Assembly: GCA_027490095.1 (NCBI GenBank)
Contig: JAIXYT010000025.1
Span: forward strand, 1-64,000
Source: Sphingomonadales bacterium
GTDB taxonomy: Bacteria > Pseudomonadota > Alphaproteobacteria > Sphingomonadales > Sphingomonadaceae
Direction: 5' to 3'
DNA length: 64,000 nucleotides
The notes under the pieces were generated by a model. That model ran no database searches and was not told the DNA's origin. It worked only from the letters and a program-made list of their open reading frames with translations. Positions 4,739 to 54,007 of this stretch are shown here, in pieces. Every line of letters begins with the position of its first letter. The stretch's first letter is position 1. The position numbers and the translations under genes are program-made.

Positions 4739-5656
4739 TCAGTCGAACGGGAAGACCCGGGCCCAGTCCTTCGCCATGTCGATGATGGTCCAGCCCCGCG
4801 CCGGCCCTTCGTCCAGCCCGCGCGCGAGGCGACCGACGGAAGACTCGCGGTCATAGGCATATTCGCGGGCCGCATCTGTGTGGTGCAGCAACATGCCAAG
4901 CCGCGGCCCGTCGCCTGCCGTCACCCACTCCAGCATCTCGAAATCGCCGTCCGAATTGCCGAAGGCTGCCAGCGGCCGGCGCCCCAGGAAGCGGTTGATG
5001 CCCACGGGCTTGCCGGCATTGTCGTTGAGGAAGTCGAGCTCCGCCTCGCGCATCAGGGCGGGCCTGCCATCGATCAGCTGGTAGCGCGTGGTGATCGAGC
5101 TGCCGATCACCTGCTCGGGCGGAATTCCATAGGTGGCCTGGCTGAAGGTGCGGATGAACTCGATCCCGCCGCCCGACACGATGTGGCAGCGGAAGCCATG
5201 TGCCTCAAGGTACCGCAGCAGCTCGAGCATGGGCTGGTAGATCATCCTGTCGAATGGTTGGCCGAAGCGGGGATGGCGTGCCGTGCGCAGCCAGTCCATC
5301 ACGATGGTTGCGAAATCGTCTGTCGTGATGTGGGCGTGGCTCGCCATGATCAGGGTTGCCAGCGCTTCCATGCCGCCGGCTGCCAGTGTTTCCATGTCAT
5401 TTTCGAGCACGGCCCGGAAGGGCTGGGTCTCGTGCCATTCGGGGTGGTCGGCGGCCAGCGCCCGGACCCGGTCAAATCCGAACAGCCCCTGGACGTAGAA
5501 GGGCTTTTCAGACCAGAGAGTCCCGTCATTGTCGAACACCGCGATCCGGTCGGCCGCGTCGACGAAGTCCGGCTGGCCGGGCGTTGTCACGCGCGCGACG
5601 AAATCCAGGATCGCGCGCCGCGCCGGGCTCTCGCGCCAAGAGGGCAGGGCCGTCAT
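4739..5656 (-). CDS. HAD-family hydrolase (phosphoserine-phosphatase-like)
   Basis: FDNDGTLWSEKP, HIVSGGGIEFIR, AFGNSDGDFEML. Confidence 0.85.
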   Translation of the reverse strand: MTALPSWRESPARRAILDFVARVTTPGQPDFVDAADRIAVFDNDGTLWSEKPFYVQGLFGFDRVRALAADHPEWHETQPFRAVLENDMETLAAGGMEALATLIMASHAHITTDDFATIVMDWLRTARHPRFGQPFDRMIYQPMLELLRYLEAHGFRCHIVSGGGIEFIRTFSQATYGIPPEQVIGSSITTRYQLIDGRPALMREAELDFLNDNAGKPVGINRFLGRRPLAAFGNSDGDFEMLEWVTAGDGPRLGMLLHHTDAAREYAYDRESSVGRLARGLDEGPARGWTIIDMAKDWARVFPFD

Positions 5657-6312
5657 GCGGCCGGGTCCCAGCGGTGCAGCATCCGGGCCGCCGTGCCGAA
5701 GGGGCCCAACTGGTAGAGCGCCGCAGTCGGGCAGGCGAAGGCGAAGGGCGCGAAGGGTTCGGCCATCATGGCCTCCAGCGTGCCTGTGGGCGCGACGCCG
5801 GTGCTGACATGCGGTTCGAAATGGGCGCCGGCTCCCTTGCTGGTGAAATGGGTCACATAGTCGATCAGCGCCGCATCGAAGGCGGGATTGCCGTGCCCTT
5901 CCGTGAAGGCGTCGATGCCGCCCGTCGGCGCAAGGAACGGTGCCGCTGCGGTGATCACGTCGGCCTGCAGTTCCAGCAGGGCCGGCGTGACGGCCACCCA
6001 GATGCCGGCAATTCCCATCCCGGGCCCGGGCGTGTAGCCGAACCGTTCGGCCTGCAACTCCAGCAGATGCGGGCGGGTGCCGACGATGACAGCACCGACG
6101 GCAGCCTTCAGCGCGACCAGGTCGTGCGTCGGAACGAAGGCCTGCAGCAGCGTGATGTGCGGGCTGTGCTGCGCATCCAGCGCAAAGCCGCCCGGAAAGA
6201 TGGCCCGCAGCCGCACATTGTCGGCCTCGGCCCGCGCCAGCATCCGCGCGTCGGGTTCCAGCAGCACATCGATCGCGATCAGGTCCTGTGCCATCCCCAC
6301 CTCTTCCGGCAA
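5653..6312 (-). CDS. 2H phosphoesterase / 2'-5' RNA ligase-like protein
   Basis: Two H-x-[ST] motifs (SPHITLLQ, EPHVSTGV); overlaps the HAD gene by 4 bp. Confidence 0.55.
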   Translation of the reverse strand: MPEEVGMAQDLIAIDVLLEPDARMLARAEADNVRLRAIFPGGFALDAQHSPHITLLQAFVPTHDLVALKAAVGAVIVGTRPHLLELQAERFGYTPGPGMGIAGIWVAVTPALLELQADVITAAAPFLAPTGGIDAFTEGHGNPAFDAALIDYVTHFTSKGAGAHFEPHVSTGVAPTGTLEAMMAEPFAPFAFACPTAALYQLGPFGTAARMLHRWDPAA

Positions 6313-35563: not shown

Positions 35564-36316
35564 TCAGGCGGAGACGGTCGAGCCGGGCAGACGGCGCTTG
35601 CGGGCCGCGAAGCCGACGAGGCCGAAGCCTGCAACCAGCAGCGCCCAGCTGGTGGGTTCCGGCACGGTCGGCATGTCCACGAAGCCGACGGTGTGGTTGT
35701 CGGATTCATATCCGCCGCCGCCGGCCTGGTAGAAGCGGATGCGATCGAAGGTGGTGCCGGTGGGCTTGAACACGTTCACGAAGGCGAACATCTCGTTGCG
35801 GACCTGGCCCTGGAAGGGGGCGGTCGGGTTGCCGCACCAGGCGCTGGTGGGGCAGTTCCGGAGGTCGGCCCGGATGGAGGCCGGCGTGATCGTCTCGATG
35901 AGCGTGTTGCCCTTGTAGAAGGCGAGGCGGTTCTGGCCGTCGAGCGCCGACAGCCAGTAGCCGAAATAGGACAGGCCTTCGCGCGGGGCGCGGGTGAAGA
36001 CCACCTCATAGCCGCCGTCGGACTGGAAGGTGACGGCGTGGTTGCCGACACCGCCGGCCGAGCCATAGACATTGGGGCCGTCGATCCGGACATCGCGATA
36101 TTCGGCGCGGATCAGGCCCGCGGTGCCGAAATCGGTGGTGAAGGTCCGGTCGTTCCCGCGCTGGCGCGTGTTGAACCGTTCGACGCCGACGATTGCGAGC
36201 GTCTGGGTCGTGTTCTGCACGCCCGGTGCTTCATAGGTCAGCGTCGCAACGGCCGTGGCCGGCGTCGCGAGGAAGGCAGCTGCCGCAAGTGCGGCGGAAA
36301 CGAGCATGGTACGCAT
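35564..36316 (-). CDS. PEPxxWA-CTERM sorting domain protein
   Basis: Signal peptide MRTMLVSAALAAAAFLATPATA; C-terminal VPEPTSWALLVAGFGLVGFAARKRR. Confidence 0.9.
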   Translation of the reverse strand: MRTMLVSAALAAAAFLATPATAVATLTYEAPGVQNTTQTLAIVGVERFNTRQRGNDRTFTTDFGTAGLIRAEYRDVRIDGPNVYGSAGGVGNHAVTFQSDGGYEVVFTRAPREGLSYFGYWLSALDGQNRLAFYKGNTLIETITPASIRADLRNCPTSAWCGNPTAPFQGQVRNEMFAFVNVFKPTGTTFDRIRFYQAGGGGYESDNHTVGFVDMPTVPEPTSWALLVAGFGLVGFAARKRRLPGSTVSA

Positions 36317-36455
36317 GGCAAAAAGTCCGACCCGTGTTTCGAGGGGCGGACAATCCGTCCCTCTGTGGCCCAATTACGGGCTTCTGAGGGGGCCTTTAGC
36401 ACAGTTGCAGCGCCAGGCGGTGTAAACAAAGGCAAGTAACGGCGCTGAAACAAAT

Positions 36456-36508: not shown

Positions 36509-37267
36509 TCAGGCCGTGACGATAGCGGCCGCCCCGCGGCGGCGGCGGGCGGCAAAGCCCACCAGGCCGAAGCCGGCGATCATCATCGCCCAGGTGGCGG
36601 GCTCGGGGATCACGCCGCTTGGCTTGGTGAAGAAGCCGACGGTGTGGTTGTCGGATTCATATCCGCCGCCGCCAACCTGGTAGATGCGGATGCGGTCGTA
36701 GGTGTCGCCTCCGGTGAAATATACGTTCAGGAAGGCGTAGGGCTCGCCGCTGTTCTTGCCCACGAACGGCGGGTCCTGGTTGCCGCAATAGGCGTTGGGG
36801 CAGGGGCCGATCCCGGCGGGCGGCAGGGACTTGATGGCGCTCGGCGTGATGGTCGCGAGCTCGGTCGCGCCGTTGTAGAAGGTGATGCGGTTCTGGTTGT
36901 CCAGAGCCGACAGCCAGTAACCGAAATAGGTGAGGCCGGTCGGCAGCGTCGTGGTGAAGGTGATCTCGATTTCATCGAGGTCGCTGAACGTGACGATGTG
37001 CTTGCCGCTTCCGCCCGAGGACCCGAACTGGTTCGCGTTGTCGATCCGGCCACCCGTGTAGGTCGCGACGATCTTGTTGCCGGTGCCGAAGTCCGTCGAG
37101 AAGTTTGCGGCAGACCCGACTGTGCGCGTCTCGAAGGTTTCGACCCCCGAAACGGTGAAGCCAGCCGTGGTGTTCTGCACGTTCGGCAATTCATAGTTGA
37201 TGAAGAATCCTGCCGAGGCAGGCGCAGCCAGCAGCAGGGCCGCGGTTGCAAGGAAAAGGCGCTTCAT
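36509..37267 (-). CDS. PEPxxWA-CTERM sorting domain protein (paralogue of 35564-36316)
   Basis: MKRLFLATAALLLAAPASA; shared YFGYWLSALDxQNRxxFY and GGGGYESDNHTVGF; C-terminal IPEPATWAMMIAGFGLVGFAARRRR. Confidence 0.9.
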   Translation of the reverse strand: MKRLFLATAALLLAAPASAGFFINYELPNVQNTTAGFTVSGVETFETRTVGSAANFSTDFGTGNKIVATYTGGRIDNANQFGSSGGSGKHIVTFSDLDEIEITFTTTLPTGLTYFGYWLSALDNQNRITFYNGATELATITPSAIKSLPPAGIGPCPNAYCGNQDPPFVGKNSGEPYAFLNVYFTGGDTYDRIRIYQVGGGGYESDNHTVGFFTKPSGVIPEPATWAMMIAGFGLVGFAARRRRGAAAIVTA

Positions 37268-37460
37268 GATCTGTCCCCAATGAACGAGCTGTCCGACGAG
37301 CTCGCCAGAATGCGTGCAAGAGATGTGCCAATTTCTTGGGAGGGGATTCGCCGAAGGCATGAAGCCTGCAAATGGCCGGCAACGCGTTCACGCCTGTCAA
37401 AACTCTTGACAGGTGCGGCCGCCATTATCCTTTCCAGATGTTAACCTTTGCGCCCTCCGG

Positions 37461-43636: not shown

Positions 43637-44020
43637 TCAACCGCACCCCCTCATGCCCCCCACAGGCACGACAATCGCTTCCGCCCCTCCATCCGTCTGC
43701 TCGATCCGCATCGAGCCGGATTCGATGATCGCGCCGTTCTGGATCTGGCCGCCGGTCGCGAACTCCAGGCGCACCGACACCTTGTAGCCATGCCCGCCGA
43801 ACTGGCCGGGCGCGAACTGGGCAATGTCGAACATCTGCTTGCCCCGACCCGTGCCCTTCTGCATCCGCATCGTCTGGCTGGTCTCGTCGATCATGGCGAT
43901 GCGGATCGGCGCCTCGGTGCGGGTCCACAGGAAGGTCCGGCAGCGCCCCGGGGCCGCCGGCTGGGGCGGCAGCTCGGTCAGGCCCATGAGGGCGGTGGCG
44001 AGCAGGGTAAGGCCGATCAT
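43637..44020 (-). CDS. Small putative exported protein of unknown function, distal gene of the T2SS operon
   Basis: Overlaps the GspL/M ORF stop by 4 bp; hydrophobic N-terminus MIGLTLLATALMGLTELPP; two Cys. Confidence 0.65.
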   Translation of the reverse strand: MIGLTLLATALMGLTELPPQPAAPGRCRTFLWTRTEAPIRIAMIDETSQTMRMQKGTGRGKQMFDIAQFAPGQFGGHGYKVSVRLEFATGGQIQNGAIIESGSMRIEQTDGGAEAIVVPVGGMRGCG

Positions 44021-45339
44021 GGGGCAACACCGAGGTCTGCCGAAATCGTCTGGTCGGCATTGCGGGTGAAGGTCGCGGCGGTGAAGCGGGCGCCCTTCAT
44101 CTCCAGGTCCGAGATCAGCGGAAGCAGCACCGTTGCGCGCGCCGCCGGGACCATGATCCGAGGGCCCGTCTGCCCGGGCGGCGCCAGGCCTGCCGCCATC
44201 AGGGCTGCGGCCACGGCATCCGCCTTCATCGGCGCGCCGCGGGCTCGGGCGGCGCCGGCGAGGGCTGCGTCCTGCCGGGCGGTCACCAGCCGCAGCATCG
44301 ATCGCGCGAGCGGCGTGTCGACCGTGGCCCGGGCTGCCTGGCGGTCCCCTATGGTCACCGTCGTGCCCGAGGCCGTCGCGACGAAGGCCCCTCCGGCCAT
44401 GCGCTGGCCGACGAGGGCGATCGCGTCGGCGGGGCCTCCCAGACCCAGCAGAAGGCTGCCGTCGGGCTGAAGCCGCGCCGTGTCGAGCCGTGCACCCGGC
44501 ACCTGTTCAAGGATTGCCGTTGCAAAGGTCATGCGCGCGCCGAGCGCGCCGCCTTCGGCCTTTCGCCGCGCGTCGGCGAGCGCTGCGGCGCCGGCCTCTG
44601 CGTCGGCAGGCCGCGTGCCGAGCGTCTGGGCGGCAAGCTCCACGACGGCCCGGTCGCCGACGGCAACGGCGGCTGCGCTGCGCGCCTCTTGAATCGCGAG
44701 CGGCGCAAGCGCCAGCGCCGCCACCAGCAGCGCGAGCAGGATGGCCGTGATCCGGAACCGCCGTTCGGCCCACCAGCGGCGGCGCGGCGCATAGGCGCCC
44801 TGCAGCAGGTCGATGGGCAGCGGATCCGGGGTTGCAGCCGGCGCGAACTCGCCCAGCTGGAGGAATCGGCCGAGCTGGCTTGCGCCTGTCAGCGCCGAGG
44901 CGAGAGACGGTTCGACGAGGCCGGCAAGATCGGTCGTTCGCAGCAGCACCCGGTCGCCGAAGCGGGCCATGGTCGGGGCCGCTTCGGCCGGTTCCAGCAG
45001 CAGGGCGGCCGGCACCAGATGCGCAGGCTCCGCGCCGGCCGCGCGGAAGTGCGACAGATGCCCCGCCATCCGCTCATGCGCGATGACGGCGACCCAGCTT
45101 GCGCCATCCTCGTCTGCCGGGCCGACTGCCACATGCAGGTCCTCGATCGGCTGGGCCGACAGGTCGGTCGCGCGCATGCGGGCTTCCGCCAGCCGCGCGC
45201 GGCTGTCGGCTTCCGTGAGCGTCAGCCGGTGCAGCGCGACATCGTCGCCGGGAATCACGGCAACGGTCGCGCCGGGCGACTCCGCGCTCGCCTCGCCGAG
45301 CGGCCGTACCCCGTCTTGCGTGGCCAGAAGGATGGTCAT
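44017..45339 (-). CDS. gspL: Type II secretion protein GspL with C-terminal GspM-like domain (apparent fusion)
   Basis: Position between gspK and operon end; TM ITAILLALLVAALALAPLAI; GspL-like cytoplasmic part; C-terminal PRIMVPAARATVLLPLISDLEMKGARFTAATFTRNADQTISADLGV resembles the GspM periplasmic domain. Confidence 0.75.
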   Translation of the reverse strand: MTILLATQDGVRPLGEASAESPGATVAVIPGDDVALHRLTLTEADSRARLAEARMRATDLSAQPIEDLHVAVGPADEDGASWVAVIAHERMAGHLSHFRAAGAEPAHLVPAALLLEPAEAAPTMARFGDRVLLRTTDLAGLVEPSLASALTGASQLGRFLQLGEFAPAATPDPLPIDLLQGAYAPRRRWWAERRFRITAILLALLVAALALAPLAIQEARSAAAVAVGDRAVVELAAQTLGTRPADAEAGAAALADARRKAEGGALGARMTFATAILEQVPGARLDTARLQPDGSLLLGLGGPADAIALVGQRMAGGAFVATASGTTVTIGDRQAARATVDTPLARSMLRLVTARQDAALAGAARARGAPMKADAVAAALMAAGLAPPGQTGPRIMVPAARATVLLPLISDLEMKGARFTAATFTRNADQTISADLGVAP

Positions 45340-46259
45340 GACAGCATCTCTACCCTGACCCACCGGCTGTAGACCACCTCTGCTGGCAACTGGATGGTGT
45401 CGAGCAGCAGTTCGCGTGTCACGCGCGCGCGGCCGGTGGTTGCGACCAGCTCGACCTGCATCCAGCGCGTGCTGGTGCCGACCTCGTTCTCGATGTTGAC
45501 GGCGCCGTCTGAGGAAAGCCCCGAACGGCCCAGGAAATCGTTCGCCGACGCCCAGCCACCGGCAGGCCGCATCGACACGGCAAGCCGCGCCTTGTCGGAG
45601 CCGACCCCCAGGCTTGCAAGGATGGGGGCCCGGTCGGCCGTGAGGCTGTTCAGGTTGATCGACGCCCGCTCCCGCGTGGGAAGCGCGCAGAGCAGCGGCC
45701 CGGCCAGCTGCCAGTGTCGCTGCGTGACGCCTGCGATCGTCGCCCACTCGCTGGGATCGGCCCAGAGCTGGCCGGTCTGGCCGAGCCTGGCCGCAGTCGC
45801 CTTCGAAAGGCTGTCGGCTTCGAGCAGCGGAATGCCGACGGCCACGAGCAGCCGGGCGAAGTCCTGCGGCCGCGCAGCGGGCTGGGGGCGGGCCATGGCC
45901 GGGTCCGTCGCCGGCGGGGCTGCAAGCGCATTCAGATTGAAGCAGTTGCCGCCCTCTGCGAAGCGCAGCGCAACCTTGCCGTCGCCGGCCGCCATCTCGA
46001 TGGGCGAGTCGAGAAGGCCCGGCTGCATGCGAAGCCTTGCCTTGAGCGACGCGGCCATGTTGGCCGACGCGGCCGTCGCTGCACTCGCCAGAAGCTGCGC
46101 CTCGCCCCGCGCCTCGGCCTCGGTGATCCGGTTCCCGGCCGCCTTCAACCGCTCCAGCCCGACGGTCGCGAACCCGGCAAGCAGAACGACCATGGCGAGC
46201 ACGGCCAGAAGGGCGGCGCCCCGTTCGGAGCGTTTCGCTGCCGGGCGATACAGGGTCAT
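45336..46259 (-). CDS. gspK: Type II secretion minor pseudopilin GspK
   Basis: RGAALLAVLAMVVLLAGFATVGLERLKAAGNRITEAEARGEAQ, INLNSLTADRAPILASLG. Confidence 0.88.
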   Translation of the reverse strand: MTLYRPAAKRSERGAALLAVLAMVVLLAGFATVGLERLKAAGNRITEAEARGEAQLLASAATAASANMAASLKARLRMQPGLLDSPIEMAAGDGKVALRFAEGGNCFNLNALAAPPATDPAMARPQPAARPQDFARLLVAVGIPLLEADSLSKATAARLGQTGQLWADPSEWATIAGVTQRHWQLAGPLLCALPTRERASINLNSLTADRAPILASLGVGSDKARLAVSMRPAGGWASANDFLGRSGLSSDGAVNIENEVGTSTRWMQVELVATTGRARVTRELLLDTIQLPAEVVYSRWVRVEMLS

Positions 46260-46849
46260 GCGCCCACCAGCAGCTTCAGGGTGATCGGAACGCCATCCCG
46301 CCGGACCAGCGTGAGCTCGACCGCGCGGGGCAGTTCGGCAGGGTCCGTCGGGGCCCAGCTGTCGGACCAGCCGCTGGCGGTCATCACCCGGAAGCGGGCG
46401 CCGACGATCCCCTGGGCCATCGGTGTCGCTTCGCCCGGCGGGGCGCCGTCGATCGCGGGGAAGGGCTGGCGCAGCAGCAGGCCGTCGGCATGGCCCCAGG
46501 CGACCTTCTCGACCGCAGGCAGCACGCCTTCTGCCCGGTAGCGGGTGAGGACAAAGCCGTCGGGCGTCAGCGTGAAGGCGGGCATCGGCTTGCCGTCGGC
46601 CCCCAGGCTGGGGCGGCGGGCAGCCTGGCCGAGGTCGGCGGCAAGGATGGTGCGCATGTCGTCGAGCGCCGTGACGGTGCCGAGCGCGCCCTGGCTTGCG
46701 GCGAAGCTGCGGGTGGCGCCCGTCGCCATGGCGGTGGCGATGCTGGCGATGATGCCGAAGATCAGCAGCGAGACCAGCATCTCGACGAGCGTGAATCCGC
46801 CCTCGCACGAGGGATGGTCGCGCCGGGGATGGTGGCGTGCCGCGCTCAT
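46256..46849 (-). CDS. gspJ: Type II secretion minor pseudopilin GspJ
   Basis: GGFTLVEMLVSLLIFGIIASIATAM prepilin signal; operon position. Confidence 0.87.
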   Translation of the reverse strand: MSAARHHPRRDHPSCEGGFTLVEMLVSLLIFGIIASIATAMATGATRSFAASQGALGTVTALDDMRTILAADLGQAARRPSLGADGKPMPAFTLTPDGFVLTRYRAEGVLPAVEKVAWGHADGLLLRQPFPAIDGAPPGEATPMAQGIVGARFRVMTASGWSDSWAPTDPAELPRAVELTLVRRDGVPITLKLLVGA

Positions 46850-47283
46850 CGGGCGACGGCCGGGTTGCCACGCCCGCGCAGCACGGTCCGGCGCGCGAGC
46901 GCAGGCCCGCCCGGCTGCAGGCTGACCATGATGTCCACCTGCACCAGGTCCGGCAGGGCGATGGCGTCGGGCGCGGGCCCGGGGGTGATGCTGTAGTGCC
47001 ACTGGCGCCCGGCGTTGCTGCTGATGCCGTCCGTCGCGCCGGTCGGGGCCGCGGGGGCCGCCAGCACCTCGACAGCCAGATTGTCGGCCTCCAGCCGCGC
47101 GGCGGCAGCCGTCGCGAGGTTGGCGGCGCCCGCGAGCTGGAAGGTCTGGAAGCGCGCAAGCGTCAGCCCGACAAGGCTGAGCAGCATCATCGCCACGAGC
47201 ATCTCGACCAGGGTAAACCCGGCCTCCGCCCCGCGAGCGCCCGCGCGGCGCGGCCTATTGCCGGTCGGAGCGCAGGTCCGCAT
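46846..47283 (-). CDS. gspI: Type II secretion minor pseudopilin GspI
   Basis: AGFTLVEMLVAMMLLSLVGLTLARFQ prepilin signal; operon position. Confidence 0.83.
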   Translation of the reverse strand: MRTCAPTGNRPRRAGARGAEAGFTLVEMLVAMMLLSLVGLTLARFQTFQLAGAANLATAAAARLEADNLAVEVLAAPAAPTGATDGISSNAGRQWHYSITPGPAPDAIALPDLVQVDIMVSLQPGGPALARRTVLRGRGNPAVAR

Positions 47284-47707
47284 TCTCGCCCTCTCCGCCT
47301 TCGGCACCGTCGGCGCCCAGCGAGAAGACCACGAAGGGCTGGTTGTTCGCCCCCGGCACGGCATAGCCATAGGGCTTCCCCCACGGATCGTTCGGGAGAC
47401 TCTTGAGCTTGGCACCGGTTGCGGTCGGCGCCGTCAGCACGGCAAGGCCTTCCTCGGCGGTCGGGTAACGGCCGGTGTCGATGCGCCAGAACTCCAGCCC
47501 CTGTTCGATGAGGGCGATGTCGGCCTCGGCCTTCTGCACCTGGGCGCGGCCCTGCATCGGCAGCACGTTGATCACGACGACGGTGGTGAGAAGCCCGATG
47601 ATGGCAAGCACCACCAGCAGCTCGACGAGGGTGAAGCCGGCTTCGGGCCCACGGCGCGCCGGCGGCATGGCATGCGAGACATGGAGGTAGGGGAAGGCGA
47701 GGGCCAT
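47255..47707 (-). CDS. gspG: Type II secretion major pseudopilin GspG
   Basis: AGFTLVELLVVLAIIGLLTTVVV; DTGRYPTAEEGLAVL; NDPWGKPYGYAVPG...DLRSDRQ. Confidence 0.95.
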   Translation of the reverse strand: MALAFPYLHVSHAMPPARRGPEAGFTLVELLVVLAIIGLLTTVVVINVLPMQGRAQVQKAEADIALIEQGLEFWRIDTGRYPTAEEGLAVLTAPTATGAKLKSLPNDPWGKPYGYAVPGANNQPFVVFSLGADGAEGGEGENADLRSDRQ

Positions 47708-48847
47708 TCAGCGGGCTCCGAGGGACTGACCAGCAAGGGTGTTGAGTTCGAGGATCGGCAGAAGCACGGCGAGGATGATCACGCCGACCATGCCGCCCAT
47801 TATCACGATGATCGCGGGCTCTGCCAGCGCGAGAACGGTCCGGCTTCGATCCGACAGCTGGCGGTCGAGGCTGGTGGCTGCGCTTTCGAGGAGCGGCGCG
47901 AGCCTGCCCGAGCTCTCGCCCGACTGCACCAGGCTGACGAGAAGTCCCGGCGGGTTCGGCAGCAGCGGCAGCGCCGCCGACAGCGACGAGCCCGCGCGCA
48001 CCTGGGCTGCGATCTTCTGGCTGGCGTGGCGCCAGGCCCGGTTGCCGAGCGTGGGCGCGGTGATCGACAGCGCCTCGGCGAGCGGCAGGCCGGCCGAGAG
48101 CATGGTGGCGAGGAGGCGGGACCAGCGCACGCCTTCCAGCGCCGACAGCCAGCCGCCCACCCCGGGCAGCGAAAGCAGCCAGGTGTCGAGCCGGGTTCGG
48201 TTGTCACCCCGGCGCTGCCACGCCCAGAGGCCGATTCCGGCGAGCAGCGGCAGGGCCAGGAACAGTGGCCAGAGCTTCTGCACCGCGTTCGACAGCCCGA
48301 GGATCACGCGGGTGAGCAGCGGCAGCGGCTGGCCCGAGCCCGTCAGCTGCTCGGCGATCGCGGGCACCACGAACAGCAGCATGGCGATGATCACACCCAG
48401 CGCCACCAGCATGAGGAGTGCCGGATAGGCCAGCGACGAGATGAGCCGGGCCCGCAGGGCCACCTGCGCTTCCAGCGTGTCGGCAAGGCGGGTGAGCAGC
48501 AGCGGCAGGCGGCCGGAGGCTTCGCCCGCCGCGATGGTCGCCTTCACCTCGGGCGGAAAGGCCGAGATGGGGAGCGCGGCCGCAAGCGGGCTTCCGCCCT
48601 GCAGGGCGCGGTTCGTTCGCTGCAGAACGGCCTTCTCGGCCTCGCTCGCCGGCTGGCGGGCGAGCGTCGCGACCGCATCCGAAATGGGCATCACGGCAGC
48701 GAGCGTCGCCATCTGGCGGATGAGTGTGGCCCGCGCCTGCGGCTTCAGGCGCGGGGCGGCGGGGTCGGTGGAACCGGCCCCCAGCCGGATCGGGCGCTTC
48801 CAGAAGGGGAGTTCGGCGCCGGGGACTGGCGGCCGCTGGGCGTTCAT
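47708..48847 (-). CDS. gspF: Type II secretion inner membrane protein GspF
   Basis: T2SSF domains; LASMLSAGLPLAEALS-type repeat (LATMLSAGLPLAEALSI), ALAEPAIIVIMGGMVGVIILAVLLPI. Confidence 0.94.
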   Translation of the reverse strand: MNAQRPPVPGAELPFWKRPIRLGAGSTDPAAPRLKPQARATLIRQMATLAAVMPISDAVATLARQPASEAEKAVLQRTNRALQGGSPLAAALPISAFPPEVKATIAAGEASGRLPLLLTRLADTLEAQVALRARLISSLAYPALLMLVALGVIIAMLLFVVPAIAEQLTGSGQPLPLLTRVILGLSNAVQKLWPLFLALPLLAGIGLWAWQRRGDNRTRLDTWLLSLPGVGGWLSALEGVRWSRLLATMLSAGLPLAEALSITAPTLGNRAWRHASQKIAAQVRAGSSLSAALPLLPNPPGLLVSLVQSGESSGRLAPLLESAATSLDRQLSDRSRTVLALAEPAIIVIMGGMVGVIILAVLLPILELNTLAGQSLGAR

Positions 48848-50401: not shown

Positions 50402-52483
50402 TCACCGGGGTGGCATCGCCGGGGCGGGCTGCGCCGGCACCGCGGCCGCCGGCGCGGGGGCCGGGAAGGGCTCCGGTTTGTAGGGCGGCGCCGTGCGCAG
50501 ATAGTCGTAGGCAAGCGAATCGAGCCGCGAATAGCCGTCGCGCGCTTCCTGGGCTTCGCGGATCCCGTCCCAGCGGTTGGCGGTCACGGCGTCGGCCTCG
50601 GACTGGGTCCGCACGACGGTGGGGCGGATGAAGATCATCAGGTTGGTCTTCACCCTTGAGCGGGACTTCGACCGGAAGAAGACGCCGAGGCCCGGGATGT
50701 CGCCGAGGATCGGGATCTTCTCCAGGCTGCGGCGCTCGTTGTCATCGAGCAGGCCGCCGAGCGCGAGGATCTGGCCGTCGCCCACCGTGACCGCGGTTTC
50801 CAGTTCGCGCTTGTTCAGGATGAAGTCGCGGTCGGCAACCGTCGCCGCGATCGAGGAAACGACCTGGTTGATCGTCAGCGTGATGGTGCCGCCCGCATTG
50901 ATCTGCGGCTTCACCGCCAGCTGGATGCCGACATCCTGACGCTGAACGGTGCGGAAGCTGTTGTCGAGATTCTGGCCCAGCGCCTCGCCGGTGGTGACGG
51001 GGATTTCCTGGCCGACGAGAATTCGCGCCGGCTGGTTGTCGAGCGTCATGATCGAGGGCGTCGAGAGGATGTTCGAATCGACGTCGCTCTTCACCGCATT
51101 GATCACGAAGCCGAAGATGGTGCTGCCGCCGAGGCTCGCAATGCCCGAGGTAAGGCCCGTCGTGCCGAGCAGGCTCTGGACTGCCGCCTCCCGGAAGCCG
51201 TCGGCCACGTCGCCGGTGATCGCGCCTTTTTCGGCCGCAACCGCGCCTGCGACCGCGAGCAGGTTGGGCGACGCGTTGGAGAAGTTGGACGAGACCAGCG
51301 GCACCGTTCCATCGCGCCCGGCCAGCAGGAACTGGACCCCGAGCTTCTTCGCCGCCGTGTCGGAGATCTCGACGATGATGGCCTCCACCTGCACCTGGGC
51401 GCGGCGGGTGTCGAGCTGGCGGATCACTTCGCCCAGCTCGCGCTGGATTTCGGGCGGGGCTGCGATGATGAGCGCGTTGGCGCCTTCGTAGCGGGCGATG
51501 ATCGCGCGGCGGCGGCTGTTGCCGGCGGCGACCCCCACATTCGCCGGCGTGGCCGCCGGTTGCGGCACAGGCTGCTGCTGTTGCTGCGGATTCCGGTTGC
51601 CGAAGGGGGTGCCGGCAAGGCCCGTGATCCCGCCCCCCGTCTGCACCGGGGTCGGGGTCTGCCCCATCAGCTGCTGCAGCACCGGCATCACGGCCGCCGC
51701 ATCGGCATGCTGCAGGAAGATCACCCGCGATTCCGAGCCCCCGGCCGCCTTCTGGTCGAGGTCGCGCGCGATCCCGGCGATGCGCTTCACCTGGTTGGCT
51801 TCGCCCCGGATCGCGATCGCGTTGGAAGCATCGATCGGCACCACCGACACCGCGCTCGCGGCATTGGCCTCGCCGCCCGGCTGCTGGACGAGACGCTGGA
51901 GCGACTGGGCAAGGTCGCGCGCGCCGGCGTTGCGAAGCTGCACGACCTGCGTTGTCGAGCGGTCCCGGTCGATGTCGCGCAGCACCTGGCGCGCGCGGCC
52001 GATGTTGTCGGCGAAATCCGCGATGATCACCGCATTGCCGGCCCGATTGGCCGACGCCGTGCCGTTGCGGCTGAGGATCGGGCGAAGCGAGTCGACCGCG
52101 GCCTGTGCATCGATGTTGGTGAGCGGGATGACGGCGGTGGAATAGCGCGCACCACCTGCCCCGGCGCCCGCCTCTGCGGGCTGGACCCGGTACTGCCCGG
52201 TGCCCGAGGGCACGGCGACATAGCCGTTTGCCCTGAGCGTCGCGAGGAACAGTTCGAAATACTGGGTCCGGCCCAGCGGCTTTTCCGACACGACCGACAC
52301 CTTGCCCTGGACGCGGGGGTCGATCACGAAGGTTGCCCCTGTCACGCGCGCGACATCGTCGATGAACGCGCGGATGTCGGCATCCCTGAGGTTGACGGTC
52401 GTCTGCGCCAGTGCAGGCATCGACACGGATGCCAGCAGCAGGCCGGCAGCAATCAGGCCGGAACGGATCGACGCGCGGATCAT
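50402..52483 (-). CDS. gspD: Type II secretion secretin GspD
   Basis: N0 domain VNLRDADIRAFIDDVARVTG; N1-N3 repeats; secretin VGQEIPVTTGEALGQNLDNSFRTVQRQDVGIQLAVKPQIN. Confidence 0.96.
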   Translation of the reverse strand: MIRASIRSGLIAAGLLLASVSMPALAQTTVNLRDADIRAFIDDVARVTGATFVIDPRVQGKVSVVSEKPLGRTQYFELFLATLRANGYVAVPSGTGQYRVQPAEAGAGAGGARYSTAVIPLTNIDAQAAVDSLRPILSRNGTASANRAGNAVIIADFADNIGRARQVLRDIDRDRSTTQVVQLRNAGARDLAQSLQRLVQQPGGEANAASAVSVVPIDASNAIAIRGEANQVKRIAGIARDLDQKAAGGSESRVIFLQHADAAAVMPVLQQLMGQTPTPVQTGGGITGLAGTPFGNRNPQQQQQPVPQPAATPANVGVAAGNSRRRAIIARYEGANALIIAAPPEIQRELGEVIRQLDTRRAQVQVEAIIVEISDTAAKKLGVQFLLAGRDGTVPLVSSNFSNASPNLLAVAGAVAAEKGAITGDVADGFREAAVQSLLGTTGLTSGIASLGGSTIFGFVINAVKSDVDSNILSTPSIMTLDNQPARILVGQEIPVTTGEALGQNLDNSFRTVQRQDVGIQLAVKPQINAGGTITLTINQVVSSIAATVADRDFILNKRELETAVTVGDGQILALGGLLDDNERRSLEKIPILGDIPGLGVFFRSKSRSRVKTNLMIFIRPTVVRTQSEADAVTANRWDGIREAQEARDGYSRLDSLAYDYLRTAPPYKPEPFPAPAPAAAVPAQPAPAMPPR

Positions 52484-53109
52484 TGCCCGCCCCCGTCGTC
52501 CGGGCCGCGCTGCGCGCCCTGGGCGGGGGGTGAAGCCGGCATGTCCAGCCCGGATGGCGGGGCCGGGTCCGCCTCCGGATCGGCTGGTGCGCCCGCCTGG
52601 CCTCCGGATGCGCCGCCGATCGGCGGCGGGGGTGCCGACGGTGCGCCGCCCGATGCGCCCGGATCGAACCGCTGCACGGTCTCGGAACCGCCGGTGTCCA
52701 GCCAGAGCGCTTCGCGCGTGCCGCCGCGATCGAGCACCACATGGTCGGCGGCGATGGCCGCCAGCGTCACGCCGTCGGCCAGCGTGTCGCCCACGGCGAA
52801 CACCTGCTGCTGGCCGTCGCCCGTTGCAATGATCGCGCTGCCGCGGCCGGTTGCCGAATCGGCCCTGACGCCATGCAGGCTGAACGGCAATGCCGTGACG
52901 GGAAGGCCGTCGCCCGTGCCGGGGGATGTGGGAAAGAAGGGGTCGACGCGCGAAAGCAGGGCGCGGTCGGCAAGCGCCGGCGGGGCGAAGGCCGGGGCAG
53001 CCGGAAGCGGGGCGAGCGCGATGGTCACGGCACGCCAGGCCAGCAGGGCGGCTGCCAGAAGCAGCGCCGCCAGAAGAAGATGTCCCGGGTGGAACCGTGT
53101 TGCCGTCAC
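52480..53109 (-). CDS. gspC: Type II secretion protein GspC (GTG start)
   Basis: N-terminal TM LLLAALLLAAALLAWRAVTIAL; HR-like LPFSLHGVRADSATGRGSAIIATGDGQQQVFAVGDTLADGVTL; adjacent to gspD. Confidence 0.85.
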   Translation of the reverse strand: MTATRFHPGHLLLAALLLAAALLAWRAVTIALAPLPAAPAFAPPALADRALLSRVDPFFPTSPGTGDGLPVTALPFSLHGVRADSATGRGSAIIATGDGQQQVFAVGDTLADGVTLAAIAADHVVLDRGGTREALWLDTGGSETVQRFDPGASGGAPSAPPPPIGGASGGQAGAPADPEADPAPPSGLDMPASPPAQGAQRGPDDGGGQ

Positions 53110-53269
53110 GACGAAGTCGGGCCCTCGAAAATGTGCGAGCCGGCGATGGAGAAGGTCATGACGGTGCCTGTCGGTTCGCGGCTGGGTTGGGATGATGCCC
53201 CGCTGCACAGGGGTCCTCGAACCGTTGGCGTAGGGATGATTCCGATTCGCTTCAAGGCTTTGTCCCTCC

Positions 53270-54007
53270 TCAACCGGCAGCCGACGCCTGCCCTGCAAGC
53301 CACAGCGGAAAGGCCGCGAGTGCAAGGCAGGCACCGAAGGGCACGGGGTCGGCAGCGCCGAGGCCGGTGCGACGGGCGCGCACGGCAGCGTAGGCGAGGC
53401 CGGCCAGCGCCGACAGCAGCAGTAACGGTGCCAGCATAGCAACGCTTAACCAAGATCCGATCGCCGCCATCAACTTGGCATCGCCAAGCCCCAGCCCGTC
53501 GCGGCCGCGCAAGGCGCGATAGAGCAGGGCGATTGCCAGGAACCCCCCGCCGCCCACGGCCGCGCCCAGCAGGCGGTCGGCCGGGCCGCCGGCGCCGAAC
53601 AGCAGCCCCAATCCCAGAAGCGGAAGGGTCAGGCGGTCGGGCAGCCACAGGTGGCCGAGATCGAGGGCCATCAGGGCCAGCAGGATCCAGCCGAACAGCG
53701 CCCCCGCCAGGCCGGTCGGCCCGGGTTGCACGAGGAAGGCAAGCACGCCGACGGCGGCGGCTGCCCCTTCCAGCGCAGGATGCAGGGCGGGAATCGGCGC
53801 CCCGCAGTGCCGACAACGGCCGCGGAATGCCGCCCAGGACAACAGGGGGACAAGGTCGCGCGCCTCCAGCTGGACTCCGCAGCCGTCGCACCGTGACCGC
53901 CCGGACAGCGGCCGGCCCTCCGGCCAGCGCAGCACAAGGGTCGCGAGGAACGACCCGGCCACAAGGCCGAGGAAGCCCCCGAGAATCGGCCAGACCCAGA
54001 CGTCCAT
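53270..54007 (-). CDS. gspO: Prepilin peptidase
   Basis: GSFLATLVLRWPEGRPLSGRSRCDGCG...CRHCGAP; GLGLGDAKLMAAIGSWLS. Confidence 0.93.
   Translation of the reverse strand: MDVWVWPILGGFLGLVAGSFLATLVLRWPEGRPLSGRSRCDGCGVQLEARDLVPLLSWAAFRGRCRHCGAPIPALHPALEGAAAAVGVLAFLVQPGPTGLAGALFGWILLALMALDLGHLWLPDRLTLPLLGLGLLFGAGGPADRLLGAAVGGGGFLAIALLYRALRGRDGLGLGDAKLMAAIGSWLSVAMLAPLLLLSALAGLAYAAVRARRTGLGAADPVPFGACLALAAFPLWLAGQASAAG

What the first reader, a model, noticed from the sequence alone, without database searches (positions are those of the whole stretch)
44017..45339. Apparent natural GspL-GspM fusion in the T2SS operon
One continuous 440-aa ORF occupies the gspL+gspM position. After a GspL-like cytoplasmic part, one TM and the periplasmic domain, a further ~100 aa end in a GspM-like ferredoxin-fold tail (MVPAARATVLLPLISDLEMKGARFTAATFTRNADQTISADLGV) with no second TM. 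An in-frame internal ATG at 44298 could also give a separate fragment.
Basis: partly seen in the sequence, partly recalled or inferred. Interest (0 to 1): 0.6.

Follow-up and report, generated by a model that had tools for sequence, protein, structure and literature searches.

The report
Natural GspL-GspM fusion in T2SS
In one branch of the Sphingomonadaceae, two proteins that normally pair in the inner-membrane base of the type II secretion machine have merged into one 440-residue protein, and the second partner has lost its own membrane anchor; this is a natural way to ask whether the two must be free to change partners.

Summary
Minus-strand ORF 44017-45339 is one 440-aa protein. Residues 1-333 are GspL (TIGR01709 and Pfam T2SSL over cut-off). 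Residues ~334-440 are GspM's periplasmic part (helix plus ferredoxin-like domain) without its N-terminal TM helix. A profile of fused proteins hits separate gspM genes in dozens of other Sphingomonadaceae; tail versus 30 separate GspMs gives hhalign E=1e-17; the tail's best fold matches are all PulM. No separate gspM was found in the genome. The fusion is no artefact: unbroken in ten genomes of three genera (three more interrupted by N runs or contig ends). A GspD+E+F tree puts 12 fused operons in one clade (support 100): a single origin. In that clade gspH and gspN have also left the operon (C-D-E-F-G-I-J-K-LM-X); all 29 unfused operons examined keep gspL and gspM apart. The internal ATG at 44298 is not conserved, lacks a ribosome-binding site and would give an unanchored fragment. 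Most likely role (inferred): an assembly-platform unit fixed at 1 L: 1 M, the M domain anchored through GspL. No published natural fusion was found in the open-access papers searched.

The parts
44017..45339 (-). gspLM, fused GspL-GspM gene, 440 aa, stop codon included
   Evidence: translation; full-length homologues in three genera
44770..45339 (-). GspL cytoplasmic domain, residues 1-190
   Evidence: PF05134 residues 24-142, TIGR01709 residues 18-303; Foldseek to GspL cytoplasmic domains 4pht, 5tkw, 1yf5
44695..44751 (-). the only TM segment, residues 197-215
   Evidence: hydropathy scan
44341..44694 (-). GspL periplasmic part, residues 216-333 (ferredoxin-like domain 266-333)
   Evidence: TIGR01709 to residue 303; AlphaFold2 secondary structure alpha-beta-beta twice
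44020..44340 (-). GspM-derived tail, residues 334-440: helix 343-367 and ferredoxin-like domain 373-438, no TM
   Evidence: profile hits to separate gspM genes; hhalign E=1e-17 and GspM HMM; fold of the tail matches PulM
44296..44298 (-). internal ATG, Met348; judged not to be a start
   Evidence: not conserved; no Shine-Dalgarno motif
43637..44020 (-). gene X: conserved small protein of unknown function that follows gspLM, and follows gspN in several unfused operons
45336..46283 (-). gspK (start uncertain)
   Evidence: PF21687, PF03934, NF037980 just under cut-off
46256..47002 (-). gspJ ORF (true start lies inside it)
   Evidence: PF11612
46846..47415 (-). gspI ORF (true start lies inside it); it follows gspG directly, with no gspH between
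   Evidence: PF02501; order
47255..47707 (-). gspG
   Evidence: TIGR01710 over cut-off
47708..48847 (-). gspF
   Evidence: PF00482
48844..50514 (-). gspE ORF (start uncertain)
   Evidence: PF00437, TIGR02533
50402..52483 (-). gspD, secretin
   Evidence: TIGR02517 over cut-off
52480..53442 (-). gspC ORF (true start lies inside it)
   Evidence: position and conservation in the operons compared; no curated model was run on it

Best explanation
The gene is a true in-frame GspL-GspM fusion that arose once, in an ancestor of three Sphingomonadaceae genera, by loss of the gspL stop and of the first ~45 codons of gspM (cytoplasmic stub and TM helix). The protein crosses the membrane once, through GspL's TM. 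Its cytoplasmic domain presumably binds the ATPase GspE as in ordinary GspL; in the periplasm, GspL's ferredoxin-like domain is followed on the same chain by GspM's helix and ferredoxin-like domain. Shown here by computation: homology of both parts, a single TM, no other gspM found, a single origin, purifying selection, and departure of gspH and gspN from the operon in the same clade. Inferred: the protein stays one stable polypeptide; L and M are held at exactly 1:1; the M domain pairs with an L domain in the same or a neighbouring chain as in the PulL-PulM complex; the system secretes without an M transmembrane helix.
For: GspL part: TIGR01709 92.4 bits, cut-off 65; PF05134 51.8 bits, cut-off 25.5. 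GspM part: fusion profile hits separate gspM genes at positions 331-441; GspM HMM hits fused tails, E 1e-13 to 7e-8, and none of 220 shuffles; hhalign E=1e-17; all seven best PDB fold matches of the tail are PulM. No separate gspM found in the genome. Single clade of 12 fused operons, UFBoot 100. Order C-D-E-F-G-I-J-K-LM-X in fused against L and M apart in 29 unfused operons. AlphaFold2 pLDDT 94 with two alpha-beta-beta-alpha-beta-beta domains in tandem. dN/dS below 1 in both parts. L:M about 1:1 in Klebsiella (PMC6882859); L and M ferredoxin-like domains heterodimerise in Dickeya (PMC3815138).
Against: Curated Pfam and NCBIfam models do not recognise the tail as GspM. Foldseek E-values for PulM are weak, 0.03-0.09. 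The fused-only profile does not reach solved GspM chains. Secretion, protein stability and cis pairing are untested; the genome is about 97% complete, so a missed gspM on an unassembled stretch is possible, though all congeners would have to miss it too.
Confidence: 0.93

Rival explanations
1. The C-terminal ~107 aa are an ordinary lineage-specific extension of GspL, and gspM is lost or encoded elsewhere.
For: Curated models give no GspM call for the tail.
Against: Direct sequence similarity of the tail to separate gspM genes at the same operon position; fold matches to PulM; no gspM found elsewhere.
Confidence: 0.03
2. The gene makes two products: the fused protein and a separate GspM fragment from the internal ATG at 44298, or a protein cut between the two periplasmic domains.
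For: An in-frame ATG is present and is kept in five of the seven species of the genus.
Against: ATG absent in G005, G006 and the two other genera; no Shine-Dalgarno motif; the fragment would have no TM or signal and would stay in the cytoplasm. Cleavage in the periplasm was not tested.
Confidence: 0.05
3. The fused gene is a decaying or mis-assembled relic of a non-functional system.
For: None beyond the unusual architecture and the long stem branch.
Against: Unbroken in ten genomes of three genera, one of them a single-contig assembly; dN/dS about 0.2-0.5 in every part; neighbouring T2SS genes intact.
Confidence: 0.02

Closest known systems
GspL (TIGR01709; EpsL, PulL, OutL, XcpY)
   Same: Cytoplasmic actin-like domain, one TM, periplasmic helix and ferredoxin-like domain, position after gspK
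   Different: A further GspM-derived helix and ferredoxin-like domain is fused to its C-terminus
GspM (T2SSM; PulM, OutM, XcpZ)
   Same: Membrane-proximal helix and permuted ferredoxin-like domain, place in the operon after GspL
   Different: Own cytoplasmic stub and TM helix lost; no own start codon; anchored through GspL
PulL-PulM C-terminal domain heterocomplex (PDB 8AB1)
   Same: The two domains joined here form this complex in Klebsiella; its PulM chains are among the best fold matches of the tail
   Different: Formed there by two separately anchored proteins
PilM, PilN, PilO of type IV pili
   Same: [quoted passage not shown] the fusion is in effect PilM-PilN-PilO in one chain
   Different: Three separate proteins there

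Membership tests
GspL | Match to curated GspL models over cut-off | tested here: met
   TIGR01709 92.4 bits (65), PF05134 51.8 bits (25.5)
GspL | One TM, then a periplasmic ferredoxin-like domain | tested here: met
   TM 197-215; domain 266-333
GspL | Binding of GspE by the cytoplasmic domain | not testable with these tools
   inferred from homology to 4pht
GspM | Match to curated GspM models | tested here: not met
   no T2SSM call for the tail
GspM | Sequence homology to GspM of related species | tested here: met
   hhalign E=1e-17; HMM of 30 GspMs
GspM | Permuted ferredoxin-like fold | tested here: met
   alpha-beta-beta twice; seven best PDB matches are PulM, though with weak E-values
GspM | Own N-terminal TM helix | tested here: not met
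   absent in the fused proteins, present in 30 of 30 separate GspMs
GspM | Gene directly after gspL | tested here: met
   tail stands where gspM stands in 29 unfused operons
Type II secretion system | Core genes gspC-G and gspI-K with the secretin in one operon | tested here: met
Type II secretion system | Minor pseudopilin GspH | tested here: not met
   no ORF between gspG and gspI; genome-wide TIGR01708 hits are only pilin N-termini of other pseudopilins

The most novel reading that the evidence does not exclude
The fused clade runs a rebuilt type II secretion platform in which the proposed exchange between L/L, M/M and L/M pairs is no longer needed: L and M are a fixed unit with one membrane anchor, and the change went together with loss of GspH and removal of gspN from the operon.
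Probability: 0.35. Interest if true: 0.65.

Novelty: new variant of a known kind. Interest (0 to 1): 0.5.

Why it matters
GspL and GspM are reported to contact each other through both their TM helices and their ferredoxin-like domains and to alternate between homo- and heterodimers (PMC3815138); what this does is open. Here evolution has removed one TM helix and tied the two periplasmic domains together. If this system secretes normally, free exchange of separate L and M subunits and an M transmembrane helix cannot be strictly required, and the fixed 1:1 unit may be easier to study by structure. It also shows that annotation by curated models alone would call this system 'GspM missing'.

Tried and rejected
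PF04612 gave two weak hits in the genome; the better is YajC, a single-TM protein matched only over the TM and the start of the helix, and the other does not match the GspM HMM: both rejected. Pfam and NCBIfam scans of the isolated tail gave only chance matches. The fused-only profile reached solved GspL but not solved GspM chains; the profile that did reach PulM contains separate GspMs and is not independent, so the case does not rest on it. A search of 385 genomes across the class found no further fused form, but it would miss distant or independent fusions. Literature searches for a natural GspL-GspM or PilNO fusion found none, in an open-access library only. The internal ATG as a second start was considered and rejected.

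Full report
Check of the observation. The ORF at 44017-45339 is on the minus strand, starts with ATG at 45339 and translates to 440 aa without interruption. It overlaps the end of gspK and the start of the next gene by ATGA, as in a tightly coupled operon. Around it lie gspC, D, E, F, G, I, J and K, recognised by Pfam or NCBIfam or, for gspC, by conserved position. Hydropathy finds one TM segment, residues 197-215.

The first 333 residues are GspL. TIGR01709 matches residues 18-303 at 92.4 bits (cut-off 65) and PF05134 at 51.8 bits (cut-off 25.5). The best structural matches of the whole model are GspL cytoplasmic domains, E=7e-9.

The last 107 residues are GspM. Curated models miss this, so relatives were used. 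A profile of five fused proteins from the genus hits, in other genera, gspL with its first ~320 positions and then a separate downstream gene with positions 331-437, E down to 1.2e-9. With ten fused proteins this reaches 1.4e-13 and recurs in dozens of genomes. Those separate genes are gspM: about 150-160 aa, with a TM helix within residues 14-37 in 30 of 30. An HMM of these 30 finds tails of fused proteins with E=1e-13 to 7e-8 and none of 220 shuffled sequences; hhalign gives E=1e-17 over GspM columns 46-157, against 0.02-0.06 for the other parts of the fusion. Synteny agrees: gspM follows gspL in all 29 unfused operons examined.

Structure. AlphaFold2 with 54 sequences gives mean pLDDT 94.3, with no weak stretch in the tail. 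Residues 266-333 and 373-438 each read alpha-beta-beta-alpha-beta-beta, the permuted ferredoxin-like fold that is described for GspL and GspM and called infrequent (PMC6233222). The helix 343-367 aligns with the membrane-proximal helix of separate GspMs. The tail modelled alone (pLDDT 90) has PulM chains as its seven best PDB matches, probability 0.98-1.00, although the Foldseek E-values are weak, 0.03-0.09. Both models used alignments that include separate GspMs.

No other gspM. The genome has no hit to the separate-GspM profile. Two weak PF04612 hits exist; the better is YajC and the other fails the GspM HMM. None of the six congeners has a convincing separate gspM; one marginal hit in G003 (E=0.001, off the operon) was not followed up.

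Distribution and origin. The fusion is in all seven sampled species of the genus, five of a second genus and one of a third. Ten are unbroken; G005, G135 and G275 are interrupted by N runs or contig ends, and G002, counted as unbroken, has a short N run inside the open frame. Named members are Sandaracinobacter neustonicus, Sandaracinobacteroides hominis, S. sayramensis and Sandarakinorhabdus MAGs. Other Sphingomonadaceae, including Polymorphobacter multimanifer, have split genes. A maximum-likelihood tree of GspD+E+F from 41 operons puts 12 fused operons in one clade, UFBoot 100, on a long stem (0.53 substitutions per site), next to Polymorphobacter and its relatives. So the fusion arose once among the genomes sampled. 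A search of 385 genomes across the class found no other.

The operon changed as well. Fused operons read C-D-E-F-G-I-J-K-LM-X; unfused ones read C-D-E-F-G-H-I-J-K-L-M, mostly with a detectable N, some followed by X. A pseudopilin ORF between G and I was found in 28 of 29 unfused operons and in none of the fused. gspH was not found elsewhere in the fused genomes. A lone gspN-like gene lies away from the operon in four of the seven species of the genus; in the window's genome it is next to an aspartate-semialdehyde dehydrogenase-like gene. So GspN looks displaced rather than lost there; no hit over cut-off was seen in the other fused genomes.

The internal start. Met348 (ATG at 44298) is kept in five of seven species of the genus but not in G005, G006 or the other two genera. 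There is no Shine-Dalgarno motif before it, and a product from it would have no TM or signal. It is unlikely to be a start.

How it most likely works. Shown: one chain with GspL's cytoplasmic domain, one TM and two periplasmic ferredoxin-like domains, under purifying selection (dN/dS about 0.33-0.38 in the M part, similar to the L part). Inferred: the L and M domains form a heterocomplex in Klebsiella (PDB 8AB1), are present at about 1:1 there (PMC6882859) and compete between homo- and heteropairs in Dickeya (PMC3815138); the fusion would fix a 1:1 unit and anchor the M domain through GspL. GspM is also reported to protect GspL from proteolysis (PMC6233222), which a fusion would build in. What is lost is the TM-TM contact of L and M described in Dickeya. 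Whether the M domain pairs within its own chain or with a neighbour was not tested.

Novelty. Each domain belongs to a known family and the machine is a known one. The fused, TM-less form of GspM was not found in the papers searched (open-access library only). It is a new variant of a known kind.

Noticed in passing
43637-44020 (minus strand): Gene X: a small protein, probably exported, with conserved Cys near both ends (motifs ELPPQ...PGxC...FLW and PVGGxRxC), no Pfam or NCBIfam match. It follows gspLM in the fused operons and lies after gspM/gspN in nine unfused ones, so it may be an undescribed T2SS accessory protein.
   Followed up: partly
L166, about 5050-5838 (G000:C2:65244-65801): A stand-alone gspN-like gene (PF01203 over cut-off) away from the T2SS operon, next to an aspartate-semialdehyde dehydrogenase-like gene; also found in three congeners.
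   Followed up: partly
about 47230-47260: gspH is missing between gspG and gspI in the window and in all fused operons, and was not found elsewhere in those genomes.
   Followed up: yes
53270-54007 (minus strand): A prepilin-peptidase-like ORF (gspO-like, with paired CxxC motifs) directly before gspC; read from the sequence, no model run.
   Followed up: no
35564-36373 and 36509-37360 (minus strand): Two adjacent similar proteins with signal-like N-termini and PEP-CTERM-like C-termini (PEPxxWAxxxAGFGLVGFAARxRR); read from the sequence.
   Followed up: no
GspD+E+F tree, stem of the fused clade: The stem is long (0.53 substitutions per site), so the core T2SS genes also changed much on the branch where the fusion arose.
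   Followed up: no
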